DNA of 64,000 bases from Desulfovibrio piger. Its GTDB lineage: Bacteria; Desulfobacterota; Desulfovibrionia; Desulfovibrionales; Desulfovibrionaceae. Where the stretch lies: positions 1-64,000 of the forward strand of contig NZ_JABAFY010000003.1 of assembly GCF_012843875.1 (NCBI RefSeq), read 5' to 3'. Positions 1,866 to 46,231 of the stretch are shown piece by piece. Within the stretch, counting starts at the first letter, position 1. The number at the start of each line of letters is the position of its first letter. Both the position numbers and the translations under genes were made by a program. Under the pieces are notes generated by a model that saw only the letters and a program-made list of their open reading frames with translations, was not told the origin of the DNA and made no database searches.

Positions 1866-3404
1866 ATGGATCCGTTTGACGCGGGTTGGCTCTCTCTGCT
1901 GCCGCCCATCATCGCCATCACCCTGGCCCTGATCACCAAGGAAGTCATTTCCTCCCTCTTCCTCGGTATTCTCAGCGGCACCGTCATCTATTGCCTGGGC
2001 ATGGGCACGGGCGACCTGATCATCAAGCCCGTGGAGATCGCCTTCACCACCATGGTGAACAAGGTCGATTTCAACATCATCATCTTCTGTACCCTGCTGG
2101 GCGCGCTGGTGTTCACCATCTCGCGTGCCGGCGGTACCCGTGCCTACGGCAACTGGGCCACCAGGCGCATCAAGAGCAAGCGCGTGGCCATGCTCTCCAC
2201 CGGCGGCCTGGGCGCCTTCATCTTCATCGACGATTATTTCAACTGCCTCACCGTGGGCACGGTCATGCGCCCGGTGACGGACCGCTACAAGATCTCCCGC
2301 GCCAAGCTGGCCTACATCATCGACGCCACCGCCGCCCCCATCTGCATCATCGCGCCCATCTCCAGCTGGGCCGCCGCCGTGGGCAGCAACCTGAAAGCCA
2401 CCGGCGCCTTTGAAAGCGATTTTGCCGCCTTCGTGGCCACCATCCCCTACAACTTCTACGCCCTGTTCTCCATCATCATGGTGGTCATGGTCTGCCTGGG
2501 CAACTTCGACTTCGGCCCCATGCGCAAGGCCGAACTGCGCGCCCAGCAGGGCGAACTGGGCAACGTGGACGCCGAACAGGCCGAACTGGGCACCAGCGCC
2601 AAGGGCAGCCTCATCGACATGCTCCTGCCCATCGGCAGCCTGATCTTCTTCGCCGTGGCGGCCCTGCTCTACAGCGGCGGCTACTGGGGCAGCGATCCCG
2701 CCTACCACACTCTGGCGGCCGCCTTCGGTAACAGCAGCGCCTCCAAGGCCCTGGTCTGGGCCTCCTTCGGCGCCATCACCGTGGCCTTCTTCCTCTTCGT
2801 GCCGCGCGGCCTCATGAGCCTCAAGTCCTTCATGGACTGCGCCGGCGAAGGCATGAAGGCCATGATGCCCGCCAACACCATCCTGGTGCTGGCCTGGACC
2901 ATCAGCGGCGTGTGCCGTGACCTGCTGCAGACCCCGCTCTTCGTCAAGACCATGGTGGCCGACGGCGGCATCTCCGGCGGCCTGCTGCCCGCCATCATCT
3001 TCGTGGTGGCCGGTTTCCTGAGCTTCTCCACCGGTACCGCCTGGGGCACCTTCGGCATCCTGATCCCCATCGTGGTGCCCGTTGCCCAGGCCGTCGATCC
3101 CAACCTGGTGCTGGTCTGCCTGTCCGCCACCCTGGCCGGCAGCGTGTTCGGCGACCACTGCTCGCCCATCTCCGACACCACCATCCTGTCCAGTGCCGGC
3201 GCCGGTTGCGCCCATCTGGAACACGTCTCCACACAAATGCTCTATGCCTGTGTGGTGGCGGCCAGCAGCACGATGGGCTATGTGGTCTCCGGCCTCACCC
3301 ACGGCAGCCTGCTGCCCGGCTTCGCTTCCGGCCTGATCTTCATGGTGGTGACCATGCTGGTGCTGCGCCAGCGCAACAAGCAAAAGGACGCTGCCCAGGC
3401 CTAG
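1866..3404 (+). CDS. nhaC: Na+/H+ antiporter, NhaC family
   Basis: A 512-residue integral membrane protein with about a dozen hydrophobic segments. Family features visible include the N-terminal PPIIAITLALITKEV segment, the FIFIDDYFNCLTVGTVMRPV stretch with paired aspartates in a membrane helix, and the late FSTGTAWGTFGILIPIVVPV and FGDHCSPISDTTILSSAGA stretches, all typical of NhaC antiporters. It should exchange cytoplasmic Na+ for external protons in the inner membrane; some relatives exchange malate/lactate or amino acids, so the substrate is not proven. The start at 1866 has AGGAG (1854-1858) seven bases upstream; ATG 1860 is only one base from that site. It stands alone between two terminators. 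Confidence 0.85.
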   Translation: MDPFDAGWLSLLPPIIAITLALITKEVISSLFLGILSGTVIYCLGMGTGDLIIKPVEIAFTTMVNKVDFNIIIFCTLLGALVFTISRAGGTRAYGNWATRRIKSKRVAMLSTGGLGAFIFIDDYFNCLTVGTVMRPVTDRYKISRAKLAYIIDATAAPICIIAPISSWAAAVGSNLKATGAFESDFAAFVATIPYNFYALFSIIMVVMVCLGNFDFGPMRKAELRAQQGELGNVDAEQAELGTSAKGSLIDMLLPIGSLIFFAVAALLYSGGYWGSDPAYHTLAAAFGNSSASKALVWASFGAITVAFFLFVPRGLMSLKSFMDCAGEGMKAMMPANTILVLAWTISGVCRDLLQTPLFVKTMVADGGISGGLLPAIIFVVAGFLSFSTGTAWGTFGILIPIVVPVAQAVDPNLVLVCLSATLAGSVFGDHCSPISDTTILSSAGAGCAHLEHVSTQMLYACVVAASSTMGYVVSGLTHGSLLPGFASGLIFMVVTMLVLRQRNKQKDAAQA

Positions 3405-3427
3405 CCGGGCTTTCCGCGATACCGACG

Positions 3428-3462
3428 AAAAAGGCGCTTCCCCGACGGGAAGCGCCTTTTTT
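3428..3462 (+). terminator. Intrinsic terminator after nhaC
   Basis: The stem AAGGCGCTTCCC (3431-3442) pairs with GGGAAGCGCCTT (3447-3458), loop CGAC, with a T6 run and a matching A-run on the 5' side. It may work in both directions. Confidence 0.9.
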
Positions 3463-3661
3463 GCGTCATGAGGACGGCCAGACACGAGAAACACAGATCA
3501 GGCCCAGACCTCGTCGTACCCTTTGCTGGCCTGCCATTGCGGGATGATGCTGCTGTGATCCGGGACGGCTCCGAGAGCCAGCGGGCAGAAGCGTGGTACA
3601 CAAAAGAATGCCGATACGGTCCTTACACGGACTGCGGGCCTCTCCCGCTCTGCGCCTCCTG

Positions 3662-4285
3662 TCAAAAGTCAAGACTGAACTGCATACCGAGCCCCACGGA
3701 AGGGTCATTCTCCTCGGGCCGGGACTTCTTGCCCCATTCGTTGTGCTCGTCCTTGAGCATCAGCTCCGGACCGATGGTCAGCGAGGCATCATCGCTGTCC
3801 ATGAAGTCGGCATAGGCCCGGACCACATGCCGCCGCTCCAGAGGCCGCAGCTCGTCAGGGCGGGCCTCGCTCGACGGCAGCTCGGCACGCCAGACGGAGT
3901 CATCGCGCCGGATGTTCATGCCGAGACGGCTTTTTTCCTCCGCCTCCCGTTCCGCCTCCTTGGCTTTGCGGGACTCGGCCTTGGCCTGGCGGTCGGCCTC
4001 GCGCAGAGCATGTTCGATGCTGGAGGAATTGCCCCTGTCCCGGCCCAGGGCCCGCTTGCGCAGGGAGTCCGTCTCCACGCCGTCATGCCACAGGGCATTG
4101 CTCCTGTCGCGGGAGGTGCCGAAACTCCAGGCCTGCCCGCCCTTGCTGTTGCCCGCAGCGGCCTTGCCCGCCGGGGCCTGCACCGCCTTGCCCTTCTCCA
4201 CCGCCAACACCGACAGAGGAGCAAGGGAGACCGTCAGGGCAGACAGGGCCAGACCAGCCAAAAACAAATGTGCTCTATGCAGCAT
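3662..4285 (-). CDS. Exported protein of unknown function
   Basis: I do not recognise this 207-residue protein. The start at 4285 is chosen because it gives a clean signal peptide (MLHRAHLFLAGLALSAL... with a likely cut near VLA-VE), although its ribosome site is poor; in-frame ATGs at 4342 and 4357 have better upstream purines but would bury the signal. After the signal there is a Lys/Ala/Gly-rich linker, then a charged helical stretch (about residues 90-130, READRQAKAESRKAKEAEREAEEK), then a C-terminal part ending GLGMQFSLDF with terminal phenylalanine. The terminal phenylalanine hints at an outer-membrane or envelope-associated protein, but nothing fixes the function. It lies downstream of the efflux operon behind a terminator, so it is probably a separate unit. 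Confidence 0.55.
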   Translation of the reverse strand: MLHRAHLFLAGLALSALTVSLAPLSVLAVEKGKAVQAPAGKAAAGNSKGGQAWSFGTSRDRSNALWHDGVETDSLRKRALGRDRGNSSSIEHALREADRQAKAESRKAKEAEREAEEKSRLGMNIRRDDSVWRAELPSSEARPDELRPLERRHVVRAYADFMDSDDASLTIGPELMLKDEHNEWGKKSRPEENDPSVGLGMQFSLDF

Positions 4286-4413
4286 GGCCGCAGGATAGCC
4301 GTCATCCCGCCGGATTGTAAAGACATCCCCGTCGCAGGACATCCTCTGTGCCCGCATGCTTCCCCGTAATGCGGCCTCTCGGCCTTTTTGGGGATGGCCT
4401 GCATACATGTACA

Positions 4414-4449
4414 CAAAAAAAGGAAGGACGCCCAAAAGCGTCCTTCCTG
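4414..4449 (-). terminator. Intrinsic terminator of the RND efflux operon
   Basis: Read on the minus strand, AGGAAGGACGC pairs with GCGTCCTTCCT (4438-4448 and 4421-4431) and is followed by a T7 run (A-run at 4414-4420 on the plus strand). It lies 26 bases past the outer-membrane factor stop. Confidence 0.9.
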
Positions 4450-4474
4450 TGTCTTTTCAGGGGGGGGATCGTGC

Positions 4475-6010
4475 CTACTGCTTGGCGGCAGGCTGTGCCT
4501 TCGCAGGAGCGGCCGCAGGCTGGGAGGCCTTCTGGCCGGCAGCGTCATGGGCCTTGACCAGCTCTTCCGCGTCAGCCACCGGGAAGGAAGGCTTGACGTT
4601 GGGATCCTGCCAGCCGCCACCCAGGGCCATGCACACGCTGACCACGGCATTGAGGCGGTCACGCAGGGCGTTGGCCAGGCTCAGCTCGGCGCTGAACAGC
4701 TGGCGTTCGGCATCCAGCACGGTCAGGTAGTCGGTGTAACCGTTGTCGTACTGCAGGCGGGCGATCTCCGCGGCGCGGCGCAGGCTGTCCACCTGGGCCT
4801 GGCTGGCCGCCACGATGGCGTCGGCCTCGCGCTGGGAGGTCAGGGAGGTGCGCACGTCCTTGAAGGCGTTCTGCACCGTCTTGCGGTACACGGCGATGGC
4901 CGCTTCCTTCTGGGCCTCGGCGTCCTTGACGTTATACCAGGTGCGGCCGAAGTCCAGCAGCGGCATGGAGCCGGTCACGCCGTAGCTCCAGGCGCCCGCA
5001 GGACCGCTGAACAGGTTCACCACGCTGGCGCTGAGGGTGCCCAGCATGCCCGTCAGGGAGATGGACGGGAAGAACTCGGCACGGGCCACGCCGATATTGG
5101 CGTTGTAAGCCATGATCATGTACTCGGCGGCGCGCACGTCGGGGCGGCGCTCCAGCAGTTCGGACGGCAGGCCGGCAGGCAGCACGGGCGGGGCCGGCAG
5201 CTTGCTGATGTCGCCGCCGCGCGGCATGACGGCGCTCATGATGTCGCGGGGCGAACGGCCCAGCAGCACGGCCAGGCTGGCTTCGGCGCTGTCCACGGCC
5301 ACCGTGGAGCTGTGCACCTGGGCACGGGCCGTTTCCACTTCGGCGCGGGCACGCTGCCAGTCCAGCTCCGTGATGTCGCCCTGACGGTAGCGGCTGGTGT
5401 AGATGCCGAAGGCGTCCTCACGCGTGCGCAGGGTACGCTTGGCCGTGGCCAGCTGCATGTCCAGGGCCAGCAGGGCAACGTAGCTCTGGGCCGTCTGGCT
5501 GGCCACCGAAAGGCGCAGGGCCTCATGGCTGACCACGGTGTTCAGCAGCACGTCCGACAGCATGGTGTAGTTGTTGCGGTACTTGCCCCAGAAGTCCAGT
5601 TCCCAGCTGGCCGAGAGCTGGCCCTGGTAGTTCACGTAGGAACGGTCCGCGATGCTGTTGTAGTTGGCGATCTTGGTGGAGTTGCTCTGCGAGGTGGCCG
5701 CACCGGCGCCGCTCACCGAGGGGGCGAGCTGGCTGGTGCCCACGCCCAGCTTGGCCGCGGCGGAATCGATCTTGGCCAGGCTTTCCGCCAGATCCTGGTT
5801 GTTCTTCAGGGCTTCTTCCACCAGGGCATTGAGCACGGGATCATTGAAGCGGGTCCACCAGTCGGTGTTCAGCGGACTGGGTCCCAGATCCACGGAACGC
5901 CACTCCTTGGGGATGTCCTGCTCGGGACGCTTATAGTCGGGAGCCAGGGAGCAGCCCGTGACGGCCAGGCAGAGCACCAGCGTCAGGCCCACTTTCAGCA
6001 GGGGGGTCAT
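4475..6010 (-). CDS. RND efflux outer-membrane lipoprotein (NodT/OprM family)
   Basis: This 511-residue TolC-type channel is the outer-membrane part of the tripartite pump encoded by the two genes upstream. It has a lipoprotein signal ending VTGC (Cys20) and the family start SLAPDYKRPEQDIPKEWR. Two copies of the OEP domain follow (about residues 60-245 and 275-455); the second contains ERRPDVRAAEYMIMAYNANIGVARAEFFPSISLTG, a hallmark of the NodT branch. The C-terminus is Ala/Lys-rich and presumably disordered. The ATG overlaps the stop region of the pump gene by four bases and has a strong GGAGGAGG site inside that gene, so translation is coupled. Export substrates cannot be told from sequence. 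Confidence 0.93.
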   Translation of the reverse strand: MTPLLKVGLTLVLCLAVTGCSLAPDYKRPEQDIPKEWRSVDLGPSPLNTDWWTRFNDPVLNALVEEALKNNQDLAESLAKIDSAAAKLGVGTSQLAPSVSGAGAATSQSNSTKIANYNSIADRSYVNYQGQLSASWELDFWGKYRNNYTMLSDVLLNTVVSHEALRLSVASQTAQSYVALLALDMQLATAKRTLRTREDAFGIYTSRYRQGDITELDWQRARAEVETARAQVHSSTVAVDSAEASLAVLLGRSPRDIMSAVMPRGGDISKLPAPPVLPAGLPSELLERRPDVRAAEYMIMAYNANIGVARAEFFPSISLTGMLGTLSASVVNLFSGPAGAWSYGVTGSMPLLDFGRTWYNVKDAEAQKEAAIAVYRKTVQNAFKDVRTSLTSQREADAIVAASQAQVDSLRRAAEIARLQYDNGYTDYLTVLDAERQLFSAELSLANALRDRLNAVVSVCMALGGGWQDPNVKPSFPVADAEELVKAHDAAGQKASQPAAAPAKAQPAAKQ

Positions 6011-9000
6011 ATATCCTCCTCCTCATCGAAGCTTTTCTTGCCTTCGTTGGGGTCCTTCTTGCCCTGCAGCTTCAGGGAGATCCGCATGATGGTGCGGAAG
6101 AAGTAGGGAACGAAGAGCGTGGCGATGCAGGTTGCGGCCAGCATGCCGCCCACCACGGCGGTGCCGATGGCGTGACGGCTGTTGGCACCGGCGCCGGAGC
6201 TGATGGCCAGCGGCACGCAGCCCAGGATGAAGGCCAGCGAGGTCATGACGATGGGACGGAAGCGCAGGCGCGCCGCATGCATGGCGGCCACGTCCAGACT
6301 GCGCCCGCCGCGCCAGGCCTCGACGGCGAATTCCACGATCAGGATGGCGTTTTTGGCGGCCAGGCCCACCAGGGTGACCAGAGCCACCTGGAAGTACACG
6401 TCATTGGACAGGTCGCGCAGCCAGGTGGCCACCAGGGCGCCGAACACGCCGAAGGGCACGGCCGTGAGCACGGCCAGCGGCAGCGACCAGCTTTCGTACT
6501 GGGCGGCCAGGATCAGGAAGACCATGACGAGCGCCAGCACGAAGATGACGGTGGTGTCGGCGCTGGCCAGCTTTTCCTGCAGGGCCGAACCGACCCAGCC
6601 CAGGCCGTAATCGCTGGACAGCATCTTTTCCGCCACCTTTTCCATGGCTTCCAGGGCCTGACCGGAAGAATAGCCGGGGGCCGGTTCACCCATGAGGTGG
6701 GCGGCGGGGAACACGTTGTAACGTTCCATGGTCTGGGGCGCCGTGCGGCGTTCCAGGGTCATGATGGCATCCAGGGGCACCATGCCGCCCTTGTTGGTCC
6801 GCACGAAGATGTCGTGCAGGGACTCGGGCAGCAGGCGGTAATCGGCCTCGGCCTGCATGCGCACCTGGAAGGTACGGCCCAGGTAGTTGAAGTCGTTGAC
6901 GTAGAGCGCACCGAAGGTGGCGTTCATGGCCGTGAAGACATCGCTGATGCTGATGCCCATGTCCTTGCAGCGCTCACGGTCCAGGTTGGCGTAGAGCTGC
7001 GGGGCACCGGTGGAGAACAGGCTGCGCAGGGTACCGATGGCCGGATACTTGGGCTGGCCGTTCTCGTCACGGGACGTGGCTTCCGCCACGAAGGCATTGG
7101 CCGTGGCTTCCAGATCCTGGCTGGTGCCGGCACCGCGCATCTGGATGAAGCCTTCAAAACCGCCCGTGGTGGACATGCCGCTGATGGGCGGCGGCGTGAA
7201 GCCGATGGTCACGGCTTCGGGCTGCATCATGGTCACGCCCAGCACCTTGGTACTGATGGCCGAGGCGCTGCTCTCCGGCGTGGTACGTTCGCTCCAGGGC
7301 TTGAGCACGGCAAAGAAGGTGCCGTAGTTGCTCTTGGTCGACATGGAGGTGATGTCCAGGCCGTTCAGGGTCATGACCGTATCCACCACCGGATCCTTGC
7401 GCAGCAGCTCGGAAGCGATGCGGGTCACGTCACGGGTGCGGTTCTGCACGGCACCGTCGTCCAGGATGGTCATGCCCAGGATATAGCCCTGGTCTTCGTT
7501 GGGCACCAGGCCGCCGGGGACCACCCGGAACAGGAAGACCAGGCTGACGATCATGCAGCCGAAGAGGGCCATGGAGATCAGGCCGTGGTCCTTGATGAAA
7601 CGCACCGTACGCACATAGCGGTGCGTGGTCTTGCCGAAGAAGTAGTTGAAGACGACGAAGGGCTTGGCCGGCTGATGGTCATGCGCATGCGGCTTGAGCA
7701 GCAGGGAGCACAGGGCCGGGGTCAGCGTCAGGGCCACGATACCCGAAAGCACCACGGACACCGAGATGGTGATGGCGAACTGCTTGTACATCTGGCCCGC
7801 CAGGCCGCCCATGAAGGACACGGGGATGAACACGGCGCAGAGCACCAGCACGATGGCGATAACGGGGGCCGTCACTTCGCTCATGGCCTTGGCCGTGGCT
7901 TCCTTGGGCGGCAGGTGCTCGGTACTCATGATGCGTTCCACGTTCTCCAGCACCACGATGGCGTCGTCCACCACGATACCGATGGCCAGCACCATACCGA
8001 ACAGGGTCAGGGTGTTGATGGTGTAGCCCAGGGCGAACATGCCCGCGAAGGTGCCGATGATGGACACGGGCACGGCGATGCAGGGGATGAGGGTGGCGCG
8101 CCAGTTCTGCAGGAAGATGAACACCACCAGGAACACCAGGATCATGGCTTCCACCAGGGTGTGCACCACTTCGTTGATGGACTCCATGACGAAGTCGTTG
8201 GTGTCCACGATGATCTTGTAGTCGATGCCCTCGGGGAAGTTTTTGGCTAGCTCCTGCATGCGGGCGGTGACGGCCTCGCCGGTGGCGATGGCGTTGGCGC
8301 CGGGCAGCAGGTAGATACCCATGGCACGGGCCACCATGCCGTTGTATTCGCTTTCGACGCTGTAGTCCTTGCCGCCCATCTCGATGCGGGCCACGTCCTT
8401 GAGGCGCAGCATGGCGCTGTCCTCACCGGTGCGGATGATGATCTCGCCGAACTCCTGCGGCGTGGCCAGACGGCCCTTGGTATCGATCTGCCAGGAAAGC
8501 TGGGCGGTATCGGGTATGGGCGCGTCGCCCAGACGGCCGGGCGAGAACTGCGAGTTCTGCTCCTGGATGGCCGCGGCGATCTCGCTCACGGTGACGCCGT
8601 ACTTGGCCAGCTTGTCCGGGACGAGCCAGATGCGCATGGCGTAGTCCATGTAGCCGAACACGGTCACGTCGCCCACGCCGGGCACACGCTTGAGTTCGTC
8701 GGCCACGTTCACCTGCATGTAGTTGTGCAGGTACACGGCGTCATAACGCCCGTCAGGCGAGAACAGGGCGATGATCTGCAGCATGGCCGGTGAACGTTTG
8801 GTCACCTGCACGCCCTGCAGGCGCACGGTCTCGGGCAGTGTGGTCTGGGCCAGGTTGACCTTGTTGTTGACGTTGACCAGGGCCATGTCCGGGTCGGTGC
8901 CCAGACTGAAATAGACGTTGATGGAGCCCGAACCGGAACCCGAGGAGGCCGTGGACGTCATGTAGAGCATGTTTTCCACGCCGTTGATGTTCACTTCCAG

Positions 9001-9207
9001 GGGGGCCAGCACGGTACCGGCGATGGTCTCGGCCGAGGCGCCGGGATAGAAGACCGTCACGTTGACCGTGGGCGGCACCAGTTCAGGATACTGGGCGATG
9101 GGCAGGGCCTTCATGGCCAGCGCGCCCACCAGCGTGATCACGATAGAGATGACCGACGAAAGGATCGGTCTGCGCAAAAAGATATTTGGTTTTGCCGAAG
9201 CTGCCAT
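6007..9207 (-). CDS. RND multidrug efflux pump, inner-membrane subunit (AcrB/MexB type)
   Basis: At 1066 residues this has the normal length for a hydrophobe/amphiphile RND pump. It starts with the family sequence FLRRPILSSVISIVITLVGALAMKALPIAQYPEL and has two sets of six membrane helices with large periplasmic loops. The proton-relay aspartate pair is present in the fourth helix (GIVVDDAIVVLENVERIM), and the porter-loop signature GFTPPPISGMSTTGGFEGF resembles AcrB. It would use the proton gradient to move drugs, bile-salt-like or other amphiphiles from periplasm or inner leaflet into the outer-membrane channel. It begins 10 bases after the fusion-protein gene and overlaps the next gene by four bases, so the three form one operon. 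Confidence 0.96.
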   Translation of the reverse strand: MAASAKPNIFLRRPILSSVISIVITLVGALAMKALPIAQYPELVPPTVNVTVFYPGASAETIAGTVLAPLEVNINGVENMLYMTSTASSGSGSGSINVYFSLGTDPDMALVNVNNKVNLAQTTLPETVRLQGVQVTKRSPAMLQIIALFSPDGRYDAVYLHNYMQVNVADELKRVPGVGDVTVFGYMDYAMRIWLVPDKLAKYGVTVSEIAAAIQEQNSQFSPGRLGDAPIPDTAQLSWQIDTKGRLATPQEFGEIIIRTGEDSAMLRLKDVARIEMGGKDYSVESEYNGMVARAMGIYLLPGANAIATGEAVTARMQELAKNFPEGIDYKIIVDTNDFVMESINEVVHTLVEAMILVFLVVFIFLQNWRATLIPCIAVPVSIIGTFAGMFALGYTINTLTLFGMVLAIGIVVDDAIVVLENVERIMSTEHLPPKEATAKAMSEVTAPVIAIVLVLCAVFIPVSFMGGLAGQMYKQFAITISVSVVLSGIVALTLTPALCSLLLKPHAHDHQPAKPFVVFNYFFGKTTHRYVRTVRFIKDHGLISMALFGCMIVSLVFLFRVVPGGLVPNEDQGYILGMTILDDGAVQNRTRDVTRIASELLRKDPVVDTVMTLNGLDITSMSTKSNYGTFFAVLKPWSERTTPESSASAISTKVLGVTMMQPEAVTIGFTPPPISGMSTTGGFEGFIQMRGAGTSQDLEATANAFVAEATSRDENGQPKYPAIGTLRSLFSTGAPQLYANLDRERCKDMGISISDVFTAMNATFGALYVNDFNYLGRTFQVRMQAEADYRLLPESLHDIFVRTNKGGMVPLDAIMTLERRTAPQTMERYNVFPAAHLMGEPAPGYSSGQALEAMEKVAEKMLSSDYGLGWVGSALQEKLASADTTVIFVLALVMVFLILAAQYESWSLPLAVLTAVPFGVFGALVATWLRDLSNDVYFQVALVTLVGLAAKNAILIVEFAVEAWRGGRSLDVAAMHAARLRFRPIVMTSLAFILGCVPLAISSGAGANSRHAIGTAVVGGMLAATCIATLFVPYFFRTIMRISLKLQGKKDPNEGKKSFDEEEDI

Positions 9208-9217
9208 AGACCATCAC

Positions 9218-10342
9218 CTACTTCTGAGCGGTCTTCTGGGCGGCCTGTCCCTTCTGGGCCTGTCCGTCACCCATGACGCTGACCTTGGCACCGGGGCGGG
9301 CCTTGACCATGCCTTCACAGATGATGCGTTCCCCGCCCTTGAGGCCGGAGTCCACAAGGTACATGTCGCCGATGGTCTCGCTGACCTCCACCTTCCGGGT
9401 GCCGACCACGTTGTCCTTATCCAGGGTCATGACGAAGGAACCCTTCTGGGTGATGAGCACGGCCTTCTGGGGGATGAGCACGGCGTTGACCAGCACGTCG
9501 CCGTCCATGAAGATGCGCACATACTGGCCGGGCATGATCCGGCCGTCGCTGTTGGCGAAGGAGGCACGGGCCTGCACCACGCCGGTCTCGGGCTGCACGC
9601 GGCTGTCGATGAAGTCCACCTGGCCTTCGCCCTGGTACATGCTGCCGTCCAGCAGACGCAGACGGGCCTTGTAGACGTTGCCTTCGGGGAAGCGCAGGCG
9701 GCCTTCGGCGGCCAGCTGCTGACGGCGCATGTGCTGCGGCGCGGCGATGGAGAAATCGATGTACATGGGATCGGTCTGGTCCACGTAGGTCAGCAGGGAG
9801 TTGTTGCTGACAAGGTTGCCGGGCGTGAAGCTTTCCTTGGAGCTGTAACCGGACACGGGGGCCACCACCTGGCAGTAGTCCAGATTGATCTTGGCGGCAC
9901 GCAGGGCGGCCTTGGCGTTGTCATAGGCGGCCTTGGCGTTGTCGCGATCCTTCTGGGAGACGGCGTTCTTGGCGAACAGGGGGCGCACGCGGTTCCACTC
10001 GCGCTTGGCGCTGTCGTACTGGGCCTCGGCCTGCTGGACGGCGGCCTCGTACTGGTCGCGCTCGATCTGGAACATGAGCTGACCGGCCTTGACGAACTCG
10101 CCTTCACGGTACAGACGCTTCTCGATGATGCCCTGCACACGGGCACGCACTTCGACGGACCGGGAGCCGGAGGCCTGGGCCTGGAATTCGGAAGGCCAGG
10201 GCACGTCCTTGGCTTCCACCTGGAAGACGCCCACCGGCGGGGCGGGCATCTGACCTTTTTGAGCACCTTCATCCTTGCATGCCGCAAGGCTGAAACAGAG
10301 AAGCAACAGCAGCGTTGCCAGAATGGTCTGTTTTCCGGTCAT
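9218..10342 (-). CDS. RND efflux periplasmic adaptor lipoprotein (AcrA/MexA type)
   Basis: A 374-residue membrane-fusion protein with a lipobox LAAC (Cys22). The order of domains is visible: barrel-sandwich half near EVRARVQGIIEKRLYREGEFVKAGQLMFQIE (about residues 66-96), a helical hairpin (about 100-165, AAVQQAEAQYDSAKREWNRV...AKAALRAAKINLDYC), the second lipoyl half (VVAPVSGYSSKESFTPGNLVS) and the beta-barrel region with the family phrase GRIMPGQYVRIFMDG. It links the inner-membrane pump to the outer-membrane channel. It is the first gene of the operon; AGGAG lies about 11 bases before the ATG. No regulator gene of the TetR or MarR type is adjacent, which is unusual for such operons. Confidence 0.94.
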   Translation of the reverse strand: MTGKQTILATLLLLLCFSLAACKDEGAQKGQMPAPPVGVFQVEAKDVPWPSEFQAQASGSRSVEVRARVQGIIEKRLYREGEFVKAGQLMFQIERDQYEAAVQQAEAQYDSAKREWNRVRPLFAKNAVSQKDRDNAKAAYDNAKAALRAAKINLDYCQVVAPVSGYSSKESFTPGNLVSNNSLLTYVDQTDPMYIDFSIAAPQHMRRQQLAAEGRLRFPEGNVYKARLRLLDGSMYQGEGQVDFIDSRVQPETGVVQARASFANSDGRIMPGQYVRIFMDGDVLVNAVLIPQKAVLITQKGSFVMTLDKDNVVGTRKVEVSETIGDMYLVDSGLKGGERIICEGMVKARPGAKVSVMGDGQAQKGQAAQKTAQK

Positions 10343-43207: not shown

Positions 43208-43603
43208 ATGGACGACGCCCAGCATTCCCTGCAACGCAAACTGGAACAGGAACGGCGGCACCTGGCCTGCCTGTGCGCCGGATTCGCCCTGCCCCACGGC
43301 TACGGTGACGAGGCGGACAATGCCCGCGACGAGATGGCGGAGCTGCTGGCCTGGAGCCATGCCAACCTGTGCGCGGCGCGCATCCGCGCCCTGGAGGGCC
43401 TGCTGGGCGACCTGCGGTGCAGCGGCCGCCGCCTGTGCATGGACTGCGGCGAAGAGATCCCTCTGTCCCGGCTGCTGGCCGTGCCCGGGGCCTGCCGCTG
43501 CCGCGACTGCCAGCAGCTGGCGGAAGAGGAAGGCCCGGTTTGCGACCAGCGCCCGCCCTTGCTGCCGGAAGGACTGTTGCCGCTGGCCGCTCCGCTGCGC
43601 TGA
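43208..43603 (+). CDS. DksA/TraR-type C4 zinc-finger protein
   Basis: A 131-residue protein with an N-terminal helical part (HSLQRKLEQERRHLACLCAGF..., ARDEMAELLAWSHANLCAARIRALEGLLGDL) and a DksA-like zinc finger, C-x2-C in LCMDCGEEIPLSRLL and C-x2-C in CRCRDCQQL with 17 residues between. The acidic coiled-coil tip of true DksA (Asp-x-x-Asp-Ala) is not evident, so it is closer to short TraR/DksA-like proteins and may not act with ppGpp. The start has GGAGG eight bases upstream. It is separated from ppx by a terminator and followed by a 10-bp hairpin at 43640-43661. The window thus holds two members of this family. Confidence 0.78.
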   Translation: MDDAQHSLQRKLEQERRHLACLCAGFALPHGYGDEADNARDEMAELLAWSHANLCAARIRALEGLLGDLRCSGRRLCMDCGEEIPLSRLLAVPGACRCRDCQQLAEEEGPVCDQRPPLLPEGLLPLAAPLR

Positions 43604-44166
43604 GGATTGTGCCTCACGGGACAGCACCCATCCCGCCCACGGCAGGCCCCTGGGCCTGCCGCTCCTGCAACAGAACACCAACCACCGTGAATAACTCGAT
43701 TTATTGTTTGCATTTTCGTTGACGCCCCGCCAGACATTTGGGCGCGGGCGTATCGTCGCCCGAAAAATCTCAAAAAATATTTTTTACCATATCGACAGGC
43801 TCTGCCATTGTGGCGAGCCCCCCCGCCCCATTGCAGCAACGGCCTGCCATGTCGTTCCTGCGACCCTTTTCTTCGTGTTCCCCCGATCGCTCACCTTTCA
43901 TGACTGCCATGGATACCGCATATGCGTCCATTCTTATTTTATTATGAAAAAAAGAGTTCTCATAATACGTTACTTATGAAAAAATGCACATACTTTTGAA
44001 TATATTCCTTCAAAATAAGACGTGAATAAAATCATATCATATTATGTTGTGAATTATAGTTTTTTATTTTTTCTGCATACAAAACACAAATACCATGGTA
44101 TCTTGAGAAGAACAGGAGTGTATTACGTTTTGTAAAAGTATGTAACGACACAATGAGGGGAGAACG
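43604..44166. promoter_or_regulatory. Long AT-rich leader upstream of the yeiH operon
   Basis: The first 60 bases carry a strong hairpin (CGGCAGGCCC, 43640-43649, with its inverse at 43652-43661), perhaps ending the TraR-like gene. From about 43930 to 44120 the DNA is strikingly AT-rich. It contains a perfect 12-bp palindrome ATACCATGGTAT (44090-44101) 65 bases before the yeiH start and a TTGTGA half-site of the CRP/Rex/HcpR kind at 44047-44052. No pair of promoter boxes stands out. A 91-codon TTG-started frame at 43704 is not convincing as a gene. Confidence 0.4.
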
Positions 44167-45231
44167 ATGGCCAGCTGTGAACGACACGAACCGTCCTTTG
44201 TCCGGAAAAGCCTTTCCGCCCTGCCCGGTATCCTTCTGCTGACAGGCGTCGCCGTTTTTTCGTGGTTCATAACGCCGCGCCTCATCGCCCTGCATCCCTT
44301 CATGAAGTCCCTCAACCTGAGCGATTTCATCGTGGCCATCATCCTGGGCATGGTCATCTGCAATACCGTCGGTGTGCACGCCGTCTTCCGGGACGGCCTG
44401 CGCTTCTCCACTACCCTGACCAAGACCGGCATCGTGGTCATGGGCTGCAAATATTCTTTCGCCGGGCTCATCAAGACCGGATCGGAAGCCATCATCATTT
44501 CCGTCTTTCTGTTCACCTCCGCCATCATCCTGATGTGGCTCTCCCGCCGCCTCAGCATGTCGCCTTCCCTGGGGGCCTGTCTGGCCGCCGGCCTGTCCAT
44601 CTGCGGGGTCTCGGCCTGTGTGGCCATCGCCCCGGCCGTCAGGGCCAAGAATGAAGACATCGCCTACACCATCGCCGTGGTGCTCATGTTCGGCCTGCTG
44701 GCGCTCTTCATCTTCCCCTTCATCGGCCACTGGCTCGACCTCAGCCCCAACCAGTTCGGGGCCTTCGCCGGTGTGGGCATCGTCAATTCGGCCCAGGTGC
44801 TGGCCGCGGGCTTCGCCTTCAGCAATGACGCGGGCATCGTAGCCGGTGTGTACAACATCGGCCGCGTCATCTGTCTGCCCCTGGTGGTGCTGATGCTGGC
44901 CATCATGGTGGCCGCCGAGGACGCCAAGGTGCATTCCCAGCTGGCCAATACCAGCAAGATGCGCATCATCCTCGACAAGTTCCCGGTCTTCGTGCTGGGC
45001 TTCCTGGCCGTGGTCCTGCTGAACACCTTCGGCTTCATGAGCAAGGAAGAAGCCAAAATGGCCGGCAACTTCATGAACTGGTGCTTCCTGCTGGGCTTCT
45101 CCAGCATCGGCCTCACCACCCACCTCAGCGACATCAAGGCCGCGGGCCTTTCCGGTGCGCTCATCGGCTTCTGCGTGGCCTCGGTCAAGGCAGGCCTGGC
45201 CCTGCTGGTGGTCCTTTGCTTCCTGCAATGA
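44167..45231 (+). CDS. YeiH-type (UPF0324) putative sulfate/anion exporter
   Basis: A 354-residue inner-membrane protein with about ten hydrophobic segments. Family traits: PGILLLTGVAVFSWF near the start, VAIILGMVICNTVG, the LTKTGIVVMGCKYSF helix, LSICGVSACVAIAPAVRAKNEDIAYTIAVVLMFGLLALFIFPFIG, and NSAQVLAAGFAFSNDAGIVA; these match the YeiH/YadS-like UPF0324 family. Relatives are called putative sulfate exporters, and some respond to cysteine or sulfite-related LysR regulators, but the substrate is not proven. In a sulfate reducer an anion or sulfonate link would be plausible. GGGGAG precedes the ATG. Two short coupled genes follow, ending at a terminator. Confidence 0.85.
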   Translation: MASCERHEPSFVRKSLSALPGILLLTGVAVFSWFITPRLIALHPFMKSLNLSDFIVAIILGMVICNTVGVHAVFRDGLRFSTTLTKTGIVVMGCKYSFAGLIKTGSEAIIISVFLFTSAIILMWLSRRLSMSPSLGACLAAGLSICGVSACVAIAPAVRAKNEDIAYTIAVVLMFGLLALFIFPFIGHWLDLSPNQFGAFAGVGIVNSAQVLAAGFAFSNDAGIVAGVYNIGRVICLPLVVLMLAIMVAAEDAKVHSQLANTSKMRIILDKFPVFVLGFLAVVLLNTFGFMSKEEAKMAGNFMNWCFLLGFSSIGLTTHLSDIKAAGLSGALIGFCVASVKAGLALLVVLCFLQ

Positions 45232-45403
45232 CGGACAGGCGTTGCAAGGGCCTGACGGGATGCACGCAAGGCCCCTGCGGCCCTTCCCGGCGCGTTCGAT
45301 GACCGGACGGCATCATCCCCGGACGGAAGGCAACTTCCGATGCCGCCTGACGGAAAACCACAAAAACAGAAGGGACGGCTACGACATGCCCCCGGAGGAC
45401 ATC

Positions 45404-45496
45404 ATGTGGAACAAGATCTCCAAAAGCAGACAACAGGACATCATCGTCATCACCTGCGGCCTCCTGCTGATCCTGCTGGCCAAGGTGCTGGCATGA
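45404..45496 (+). CDS. 30-residue single-span membrane peptide
   Basis: This short frame reads MWNKISKSRQQDI then VITCGLLLILLAKVLA. A GGAGG lies five bases before ATG 45404, the N-terminus is basic and hydrophilic, and the second half is one membrane helix with a Lys near the outer end, so a real small membrane protein is likely. Its stop overlaps the ATG of the next gene (ATGA at 45493-45496), a strong sign of translational coupling. It lies 172 bases after the yeiH-like gene with no terminator between. It could be an accessory subunit of the transporter. An ATG at 45386 would add six residues but lacks a good site. Confidence 0.65.
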   Translation: MWNKISKSRQQDIIVITCGLLLILLAKVLA

Positions 45497-45858
45497 TCTG
45501 CTGTCTGGCTTCCGCCGCCTGCCCCCTGCGCGACACGGCCGCCCCGCTGGCCGCCTGTGGCGGACGGGAAGGCATCCGTGCCGTCTATGATGCCGGTATC
45601 GACCTCGGCCATTACGGCGAGGTGGATCAGCTGGCGCCCGCCGGAGCCATGGCGGAGTTCACGGCCTATGTGCGCCGCCAGAGCGAGGAGGAAGCGGAAG
45701 CGGCCTTCGCGCCGCTGCGGCAGGCCGCCCGCAGCCGGGGCGTAGAAATGCGCCTGCATGTGGTCTACGGCCCCAGTGCCGTACGCGATCTGCTGCGCCG
45801 CTGGGGGGAAGAAGAGACCGTGCGGGTCTTTGGCGGGGAAGGCATGTCCCTTGCCTGA
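45493..45858 (+). CDS. Small protein with partial universal-stress-protein pattern
   Basis: A 121-residue protein. I do not recognise a family with certainty. Residues 1-25 are Cys/Ala-rich (MICCLASAACPL). Residues about 70-115 (AAFAPLRQAARSRGVEMRLHVVYGPSAVRDLLRRWGEEETVRVFGG) have the helix-strand-Gly-x-Ala/Ser-helix-strand order of the middle of UspA-type proteins, where a helix, an edge strand ending in Val-x-x-Gly, a second helix and a Val-x-Gly strand follow each other. The ATP-binding ends of Usp are missing. The start is fixed by the ATGA overlap with the upstream peptide gene. Its job is probably tied to the YeiH-like transporter, as partner or regulator, but that rests on position only. 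Confidence 0.6.
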   Translation: MICCLASAACPLRDTAAPLAACGGREGIRAVYDAGIDLGHYGEVDQLAPAGAMAEFTAYVRRQSEEEAEAAFAPLRQAARSRGVEMRLHVVYGPSAVRDLLRRWGEEETVRVFGGEGMSLA

Positions 45859-45904
45859 CTCCCGGCTGCGAGCCGGGCCATGCCCCAAAGACCTGCCACA
45901 GGGA

Positions 45905-45938
45905 GCGGGAAGGAGCGGAGGTTTCCTTCCCGCTTTTT
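45905..45938 (+). terminator. Intrinsic terminator of the yeiH operon
   Basis: GCGGGAAGGA (45905-45914) pairs with TCCTTCCCGC (45924-45933), then T5. The following bases 45939-46231 contain nothing I can name. Confidence 0.88.
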
Positions 45939-46231
45939 CCCTTGCGAGAAGGCCGTGACAGAGGACACGCGGCAACGGTGCAAGGGAGCGGGGCATGATT
46001 ATCCGTATATGCGGCACGCGGCGTGCTGCTCCGGGGCGCAGCCCGTACGGATGAAGGCCCGTATGGGTATCAGGAAGCCACCGGTAACGCCGGGGACAAT
46101 CCCGCGAACCGGGACAAAGACAGGACGAAGGAAAAAGCGGGGAAAGAAGGAGGAAGAGCGGGAAGGCCCGCCCGATGGAAGCGCCCCCGGGCGGCTGCCC
46201 GCAAACGCGCGTCCGGCAAAAGCCCATAACG

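What the first reader, a model, noticed from the sequence alone, without database searches (positions are those of the whole stretch)
44167..45858. YeiH-type transporter operon with a 30-residue membrane peptide and a USP-like protein
The peptide gene has a strong ribosome site, a clear single membrane span and an ATGA overlap with the next gene, so it is very likely translated. The third protein looks like the middle of a universal stress protein without its nucleotide-binding ends. Together they could form a transporter, a small accessory subunit and a regulatory partner, a set I do not know from the literature.
Basis: partly seen in the sequence, partly recalled or inferred. Interest (0 to 1): 0.55.

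Follow-up and report, generated by a model that had tools for sequence, protein, structure and literature searches.

The report
Three-part transporter with tiny membrane subunit
A sulfate-reducing bacterium carries a transporter gene followed by genes for a 30-residue membrane peptide and a small regulator-like protein, and the same three-gene set recurs in distant sulfate reducers, which suggests that the three work as one machine.

Summary
A YeiH/PSE-type transporter (44167-45231), a 30-aa single-span peptide (45404-45496) and a USP-like protein (45493-45858) form a conserved set. It is found in 31 of 31 distinct loci, window included, where the close-relative transporter is present with its downstream sequence, in Desulfobacterota and in Desulforamulus. 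One further place (G244) is a transporter remnant with neither partner. The peptide is under purifying selection.

More distant transporters (33-40% identity) have a USP behind them in 46 of 46 loci. A small protein with a basic-acidic motif before its membrane span follows in 41 of 46. Still more distant PF03601 genes show 0 of 31 and 1 of 31. In one clade the small subunit and the USP loop motif are missing together.

The related operon DVU0542-0545 has mutant data: transporter, membrane protein and downstream USP share one molybdate phenotype (PMC10102598).

Best reading: one transport machine in which the peptide ties a USP-fold regulator to the transporter, probably for sulfite or a related oxyanion. 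Complex, direction and substrate are inferred. The peptide matches no Pfam or NCBIfam model.

The parts
44167..45231 (+). YeiH/PSE-family transporter gene (354 aa)
   Evidence: PF03601 E 4.6e-63, above cut-off; TIGR00698 151 bits, below its cut-off of 232.6; 15 other family places at 60-99% identity
45394..45398 (+). ribosome-binding sequence GGAGG of the peptide gene
   Evidence: read directly
45404..45496 (+). 30-aa single-span membrane peptide gene
   Evidence: translation; conserved in 31 of 31 distinct loci; pS > pN; no Pfam or NCBIfam match
45419..45439 (+). conserved juxtamembrane segment of the peptide, residues S6-D12 (SKSRQQD)
   Evidence: S6, R9, D12 invariant and Q11 at least 90% in 31 sequences
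45493..45496 (+). ATGA stop/start overlap of peptide and USP genes
   Evidence: read directly; also in L006, L007, L008
45493..45858 (+). USP-fold protein gene (121 aa), shortened at the C-terminal end and diverged at the N-terminal end
45604..45636 (+). loop motif of the USP-like protein, residues L38-A48 (LGHYGEVDQLA)
   Evidence: Y41, G42, D45, L47 invariant, L38 and H40 at least 90% in 31 sequences
45905..45938 (+). terminator-like hairpin and T run after the USP gene
   Evidence: fold -27 kcal/mol for 45895-45945, z -3.14, 3 of 200 shuffles as good; pattern hit at 45917-45930

Best explanation
The three genes encode one membrane machine. The YeiH/PSE protein is the transporter. The 30-aa peptide is a permanent single-span subunit, probably with its N-terminus in the cytoplasm. 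Its SKSRQQD segment at the membrane surface is the docking site for the USP-fold protein, which binds through its LxHYGxVDxL loop and sets transport activity. The load is most likely sulfite or a closely related oxyanion of sulfate respiration, most likely moved outwards as a relief valve. SHOWN: the three-gene set, its conservation, purifying selection on the peptide, the USP fold (as a prediction), the type-by-type pairing of small-subunit motif and USP loop, and (published, for the relative DVU0543-0545) a shared mutant phenotype of transporter, membrane protein and downstream USP. INFERRED: physical complex, docking surface, regulation, substrate and direction.
For: Order transporter-peptide-USP in 16 of 16 family loci at 60% identity or more, own included, in 3 of 3 further loci of the phylum sample and in 21 of 21 genome-contig loci with downstream sequence (22 found, L115 cut off); 31 distinct. 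The peptide profile in 288 family genomes finds exactly those 16 (E up to 2.4e-15), next 0.004. Cousin transporters: USP in 46 of 46, small motif subunit in 41 of 46; distant PF03601: 0 of 31 and 1 of 31. Small-subunit types I-V are each one side of a branch of the transporter tree. The USP loop differs by type: HYGxVDxL, xGxD(W/F)L, MTGDDWL or TCDDWL, LGDEWI, HYGHND; small subunit and loop are both present in 42 and both absent in 6 of 48 (L068 corrected). dsrA is present in 15 of 16 genomes of the phylum sample with a transporter match of 35% or more, against 188 of 395 over the cut-off in all, and in all 7 Desulforamulus-family genomes with the trio. Salmonella yeiH mutants are sulfite-sensitive (PMC12880088, abstract and sections 8-9 read). 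Disruption of DVU0543, 0544 or 0545 gives a gain in molybdate (PMC10102598, section 21 read); the same gene order, with a 133-aa membrane protein, is seen in L197.
Against: No interaction data exist. The joint loss of small subunit and loop is one clade, so one event, and the Fisher value is not independent evidence. dsrA enrichment is not corrected for kinship; G586 of the clade is below the cut-off, and dsrA also passes in 2 of the 3 Desulforamulus-family genomes without the trio. In type IV only 1 of 9 loci had a USP next door. The window's transporter falls below the TIGR00698 (YeiH) cut-off, so Salmonella function may not carry over. The DVU0542-0545 operon shares regulators with lactate genes (PMC3333781, PMC4641369, passages), which points to another load. 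N-in topology is weakly supported: the N-side is more positive in 25 of 31. The molybdate phenotype fits import as well as export. The opposite phenotype of the upstream USP DVU0542 is unexplained. The set is absent from a same-species genome, so it is not essential there.
Confidence: 0.5

Rival explanations
1. Same machine, other load: a carboxylate or another anion tied to lactate/pyruvate metabolism rather than sulfite or sulfate.
For: Regulators DVU0539 and DVU0946 both target DVU0542-0545, and DVU0539 also the lactate operon (PMC3333781, PMC4641369, passages). [quoted passage not shown] that 2HCT members carry citrate is recalled.
Against: Genomes with this transporter clade nearly all have dsrA; yeiH mutants are hit by sulfite, not sulfate; the molybdate phenotype fits an oxyanion.
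Confidence: 0.2
2. The set is an importer: it brings in sulfate or sulfite as electron acceptor and lets molybdate in by mistake; the USP throttles uptake.
For: Loss of DVU0543, DVU0544 or DVU0545 protects against molybdate.
Against: The homologue with the clearest phenotype protects against external sulfite, which argues for export. An exporter could give the same molybdate result by lowering internal sulfate.
Confidence: 0.2
3. The genes are only co-expressed: the peptide tunes or stabilises the transporter, while the USP is a separate cytosolic stress protein.
For: No interaction data; in 4 of 31 loci the USP lies more than 140 nt after the peptide (L066, L101, L109, L111); hairpins between the two genes in many loci suggest separate expression levels.
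Against: USP present in 46 of 46 cousins and 31 of 31 trios; the USP loop type follows the small-subunit type; shared phenotype of DVU0543-0545.
Confidence: 0.17
4. The peptide is not a subunit but a toxin, leader peptide or chance frame.
For: It is short and has no family model.
Against: Amino-acid conservation across two phyla, purifying selection, fixed place after one transporter clade, and fused relatives whose second part matches barrel-sandwich families.
Confidence: 0.03

Closest known systems
DVU0542-DVU0545 of Desulfovibrio vulgaris Hildenborough (USP, PSE transporter, 133-aa membrane protein, USP)
   Same: Same transporter family, a membrane protein with one helix and a USP next to it in one operon; transporter, membrane protein and downstream USP share a molybdate phenotype (PMC10102598, section 21 read)
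   Different: There the membrane protein is 133 aa; L197 has the same gene order and a 133-aa type II protein, and type II relatives L023 and L096 match barrel-sandwich families after the span. The window has 30 aa and one USP behind the transporter. I could not compare DVU sequences directly and did not look for a sensor kinase near the window's trio.
YeiH of Salmonella / E. coli (PF03601, TIGR00698; PSE family)
   Same: Same Pfam family; the sulfite phenotype suggests a role in sulfur stress (PMC12880088, abstract and sections 8-9 read)
   Different: Window protein is below the TIGR00698 cut-off; the sections I read name no small subunit or USP for YeiH
TeaD, USP of the TRAP transporter TeaABC (Halomonas elongata)
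   Same: A USP that regulates a transporter; its fold matches the window protein at Z 8.3. Deletion of TeaD potentiates transport (PMC8280820, passages)
   Different: TeaD binds ATP and serves an unrelated transporter; the window protein lacks the C-terminal end seen in its longer relatives
Oxaloacetate decarboxylase sodium pump (beta-gamma-alpha)
   Same: Works like: a CPA/AT-superfamily membrane subunit (OAD_beta, PMC8396727, passages) with a small one-span gamma subunit that ties on a cytosolic partner (gamma recalled, from no call)
   Different: No sequence relation tested or claimed; a USP instead of a carboxyltransferase

Membership tests
PSE / Cons_hypoth698 (PF03601) | score above Pfam's gathering cut-off over the whole domain | tested here: met
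   213.4 bits against 24.5, profile 1-298 of 304
YeiH subfamily (TIGR00698) | score above NCBI's cut-off | tested here: not met
   151 bits against 232.6
YeiH subfamily (TIGR00698) | protects against sulfite | not testable with these tools
   seen here for Salmonella (PMC12880088)
Universal stress protein (PF00582) | sequence match to PF00582 | tested here: not met
   window protein no match; 17 of 31 homologues in the same operon position match
Universal stress protein (PF00582) | USP fold | tested here: met
   AlphaFold2 pLDDT 86.9; rows 1-8 of VIA-align are all named USPs, best Z 9.8; profile link 98%. Foldseek alone was weak, best E 0.0096 and none at 0.001
Universal stress protein (PF00582) | nucleotide-binding glycine-rich C-terminal segment | tested here: not met
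   the protein ends before the segment that longer homologues have; the motif itself is recalled
TeaD-type regulatory USP of a transporter | encoded with the transporter and alters its activity | tested here: inconclusive
   operon position conserved; activity not testable
Small-subunit families in Pfam or NCBIfam | match of the peptide or its small relatives | tested here: not met
   no match for the window peptide at E up to 10; for 8 small relatives none in Pfam and in NCBIfam four hits on three of them, E 0.015-0.086, all far below cut-off, TorE among them; 2 fused forms match barrel-sandwich families outside the membrane segment

The most novel reading that the evidence does not exclude
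A whole clade of PSE transporters in sulfate reducers is built on one undescribed plan: a minimal membrane subunit (as short as 28 aa) whose motif at the membrane surface is read by a matching loop of a dedicated USP, so that USP and transporter are coupled through the peptide. In the window's lineage the USP has been whittled down to little more than this docking loop, so regulation there no longer uses nucleotide.
Probability: 0.4. Interest if true: 0.78.

Novelty: new variant of a known kind. Interest (0 to 1): 0.62.

Why it matters
Universal stress proteins are common, but what they bind is mostly unknown (recalled). Here a defined partner motif and a matching loop are proposed, in a system small enough to test residue by residue. 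It would also give sulfate reducers a recognisable multi-part transporter, perhaps for the toxic intermediates of their respiration. It offers a role for the 133-aa membrane gene with a molybdate phenotype in D. vulgaris. And it adds a family of very small membrane proteins that the two annotation libraries searched here do not name.

Tried and rejected
Chance frame: rejected by conservation, substitution pattern and controls. Unique gene order: rejected. Peptide with other transporters inside the family: no strong hit outside the 16 trio loci. Insertion of the trio as a mobile cassette: in same-species genome G096 the stretch from about 43485 to 45860 is missing and the gene upstream loses its end, which looks like a deletion. 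Structure of the transporter: model too poor to use (pLDDT 41.6), so no contact surface could be read. Gene neighbours as a clue to the load: ten neighbours in L101, L099 and L109 gave no common theme. A promoter scan found none on the + strand. The TorE hit of one small subunit (E 0.035) was taken as chance.

Corrections and rows left out. My loop pattern and my small-ORF finder both missed L068; reading it by eye moved it from 'neither' to 'both', so 41/7 became 42/6. 'Cousin' means 33-40% identity with a score of 120 bits or more. Of 58 places at 33-40% listed (a capped list), 37 were examined; the second YeiH of D. cuneatus, one of the other 21, was read apart. Of 14 rows at 34-40% and 120 bits or more, 9 were entered; L068, L075, L079, L080 and one place without a locus were not (L068 and L075 were entered). 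L093 (34%) and L089 (33%) were counted as distant because of low scores (about 90 bits). One of the 31 distant loci (L178) has only 125 nt of downstream sequence. L115 was dropped because its contig ends inside the transporter. A place in G244 (51%, residues 9-109) was read last: only the first third of a trio-type transporter is left, 76% identical to L019, and no peptide or USP was found in the 3.5 kb behind it; it is a remnant and not in the 31. For dsrA I took the 16 genomes with a match at 35% or more; G554 (34%) was left out although its dsrA match is strong; 13 of the 15 show as over the cut-off in the list, G320 and G566 by E-values of 1e-169 and 7e-168. The tree holds 30 of 31 type I transporters (L067 is partial) and 5 of the 6 without small subunit; one outgroup row (L084) sits with type V on a very long branch and is unsure.

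Full report
What is there. The transporter gene (44167-45231), the 30-aa peptide gene (45404-45496) and the USP-like gene (45493-45858) lie in one direction. GGAGG stands 5 nt before the peptide's ATG, and the peptide's stop overlaps the next start as ATGA. No terminator-like site was found on the + strand in the 172-nt gap between transporter and peptide. A strong hairpin with a T run follows the USP gene. The transporter is a PF03601 protein, below the NCBI cut-off for YeiH proper. The peptide has no match in Pfam or NCBIfam, and the third protein none above a cut-off. The genome is close to Desulfovibrio piger: the transporter is 98% identical to that of D. piger ATCC 29098.

Conservation of the trio. 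Among 288 genomes of the family, 16 places (own included) match the transporter at 60% or more. All 16 have the peptide and then a USP with an HYG-type loop, in this order. A profile of the peptides finds the same 16 in those genomes, with a gap from E 2.4e-15 to 0.004. A 17th place, in G244, is a remnant: the first third of the transporter, with no peptide or USP found behind it. A sample of 395 genomes of the phylum adds 3 places at 60-67%, all 3 with the set. A scan of named genomes gave 22 loci. Named holders include D. piger, D. cuneatus, Nitratidesulfovibrio oxamicus, Desulforamulus aeronauticus and D. putei, and MAGs labelled Desulfocapsa, Desulfococcaceae, Desulfobulbaceae and Thermodesulfobacteriales. 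In the family of D. aeronauticus, 7 of 10 genomes have this transporter at 79% or more, and all 7 have peptide and USP. In 31 peptides S6, R9, D12 and V15 are invariant; in 31 USPs Y41, G42, D45, L47 and F56 are. In the six peptide genes compared, silent changes per site exceed replacing ones in 15 of 15 pairs, for example 0.67 against 0.17 between window and L009.

The USP-like protein. The window form does not match PF00582, but 17 of 31 members of the family do. A profile of the four window-like forms aligns with longer forms at 98% probability. The predicted fold (mean pLDDT 86.9) matches solved USPs, best Z 9.8 over 110 residues at 3.3 A, TeaD at 8.3. Foldseek alone was weak, best E 0.0096. 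The window form ends before the C-terminal segment of its longer relatives. What is kept is the loop LxHYGxVDxL.

A wider family of machines. I looked behind 46 more distant YeiH proteins (33-40% identity). A finder for a ribosome site and start, a basic-acidic motif and a membrane span fired in 41 of 46, against 1 of 31 still more distant PF03601 genes and 1 of 229 control positions; in 40 of the 41 the start lies about 9-39 nt after the transporter's stop. A USP follows in 46 of 46, against 0 of 31. The small subunits fall into types: I, 28-41 aa, SKSRxQD or KVRKQD (window); II, about 131 aa, DRHED plus a part that matches barrel-sandwich families in the 2 tested; III, 54-68 aa, SE(R/K)NEDLTAL and similar; IV, 37-57 aa, TERMEDYAAL and similar, in the family of Desulforamulus; V, 55-57 aa, RARxNDY and similar. 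In an alignment of 21, D12 is invariant and R9 is kept in at least 90%. On a tree of 79 transporters, types I-V and the group without a small subunit are each one side of a branch. Eight small relatives scanned match no Pfam model, and NCBIfam only at chance level.

The loop and the motif go together. The USP loop differs by type: HYGxVDxL in I, xGxD(W/F)L in II, MTGDDWL or TCDDWL in III, LGDEWI in the one IV seen, HYGHND or HYGHHD in V. Where the small subunit is missing, the loop motif is missing too. The first count was 41 with both and 7 with neither. L068 turned out to have both, so 42 and 6. Five of the six were placed on the tree and form one clade, so this is probably one event, not six. 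I take it as a good lead that loop and motif touch, not as proof. Against a strict three-part rule, 8 of 9 type IV loci have no USP next door.

What it does. In Salmonella, yeiH is needed to grow in sulfite, while the mutant grows normally in sulfate (PMC12880088, abstract and sections 8-9 read). In D. vulgaris, DVU0542-0545 encode USP, PSE transporter, 133-aa membrane protein and USP; disruption of DVU0543, 0544 or 0545 helps in molybdate, that of DVU0542 harms, and the authors call the roles unclear (PMC10102598, section 21 read). The same gene order, with a 133-aa type II protein, is seen in L197. The shared phenotype is the best evidence that transporter, membrane protein and USP act as one. 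dsrA is present in 15 of 16 genomes of the phylum sample with a transporter match of 35% or more, against 188 of 395 over the cut-off in all (p 1.2e-4, not corrected for kinship). It passes in all 7 Desulforamulus-family genomes with the trio, but also in 2 of the 3 without. Together these favour sulfite or a related anion. The link of DVU0542-0545 to lactate regulators (PMC3333781 and PMC4641369, passages) keeps a carboxylate open.

How it may work. PSE proteins are predicted to have nine or eleven membrane helices, two re-entrant ones and the N-terminus inside (PMC8396727, passages). In 25 of 31 peptides the side before the span is more positive than the side after, which suggests, weakly, that the SKSRxQD segment lies in the cytoplasm, where the USP would be. 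I propose that peptide and transporter form a fixed pair and that the USP docks on the peptide. In longer relatives the USP may report on nucleotide; in the window's lineage that part is gone, so it would be a fixed or differently tuned partner. TeaD, whose deletion potentiates ectoine transport, is the precedent for USP control of a transporter (PMC8280820, passages).

Loss in a sister genome. G096, of the same species, lacks the whole trio at this site: the alignment jumps from window position 43485 to 45860, and the upstream gene is cut short. Its best match to the transporter elsewhere is only E 6.6e-21. The set is therefore not essential in every strain.

What is known. Searches for the trio or its relatives in print found the D. 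vulgaris operon and no description of the peptide in what I read. A survey of sulfate transporters of sulfate reducers does not contain the words YeiH, PF03601 or universal stress (PMC5840216, word search). The library holds open-licence papers only, so absence is not proven.

Noticed in passing
window 43485-45860 against L194 (G096): A same-species genome lacks this stretch, and the gene upstream (DksA/TraR-like by my own reading) loses its C-terminal end; short similar sequence at both ends suggests a deletion.
   Followed up: partly
gap between peptide and USP genes in L012-L020, L066, L102, L110-L112: A perfect-stem hairpin, mostly without a T run and of different sequence in each lineage, beats all 50 shuffles in 14 of 16 loci with a gap of 45 nt or more; L101 and L109 do not. 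It may set the ratio of the products; the window has an ATGA overlap instead.
   Followed up: partly
L023:2615-3019, L096:4494-4886 and other type II loci: The small subunit is fused to a part that matches Biotin_lipoyl_2 / barrel-sandwich families after the membrane span, probably outside the cytoplasm.
   Followed up: partly
L096 (D. cuneatus) 3114-7872: Two modules in a row: YeiH with a 131-aa type II partner and a USP, then the type I trio.
   Followed up: partly
L111 54-5096: In D. aeronauticus a second YeiH with a type IV small subunit lies about 5 kb before the trio, with a sensor kinase and a response regulator between them, reminiscent of DVU0540/DVU0539.
   Followed up: partly
L198 (G244) 987-1334: Remnant of a trio-type transporter: first third only, 76% identical to L019, no peptide or USP found behind it.
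   Followed up: yes
L020 and L011, transporter gene: The L020 match lacks the first 59 residues and the L011 protein diverges oddly around residues 200-235; perhaps frameshifts or assembly errors.
   Followed up: no
G000:C34:2526-3791 and 7969-9234: The window's genome has two full-length dsrA matches 5.4 kb apart.
   Followed up: no
G000:C63:3088-4041 and G000:C60:27311-28228 (L002, L003): Two further PF03601 proteins of the same genome have neither small subunit nor USP behind them.
   Followed up: yes
L174 downstream of a 28%-identity PF03601 gene: A 50-aa single-span ORF with an EEQDRD motif sits 13 nt behind the transporter; perhaps a more remote small subunit.
   Followed up: no
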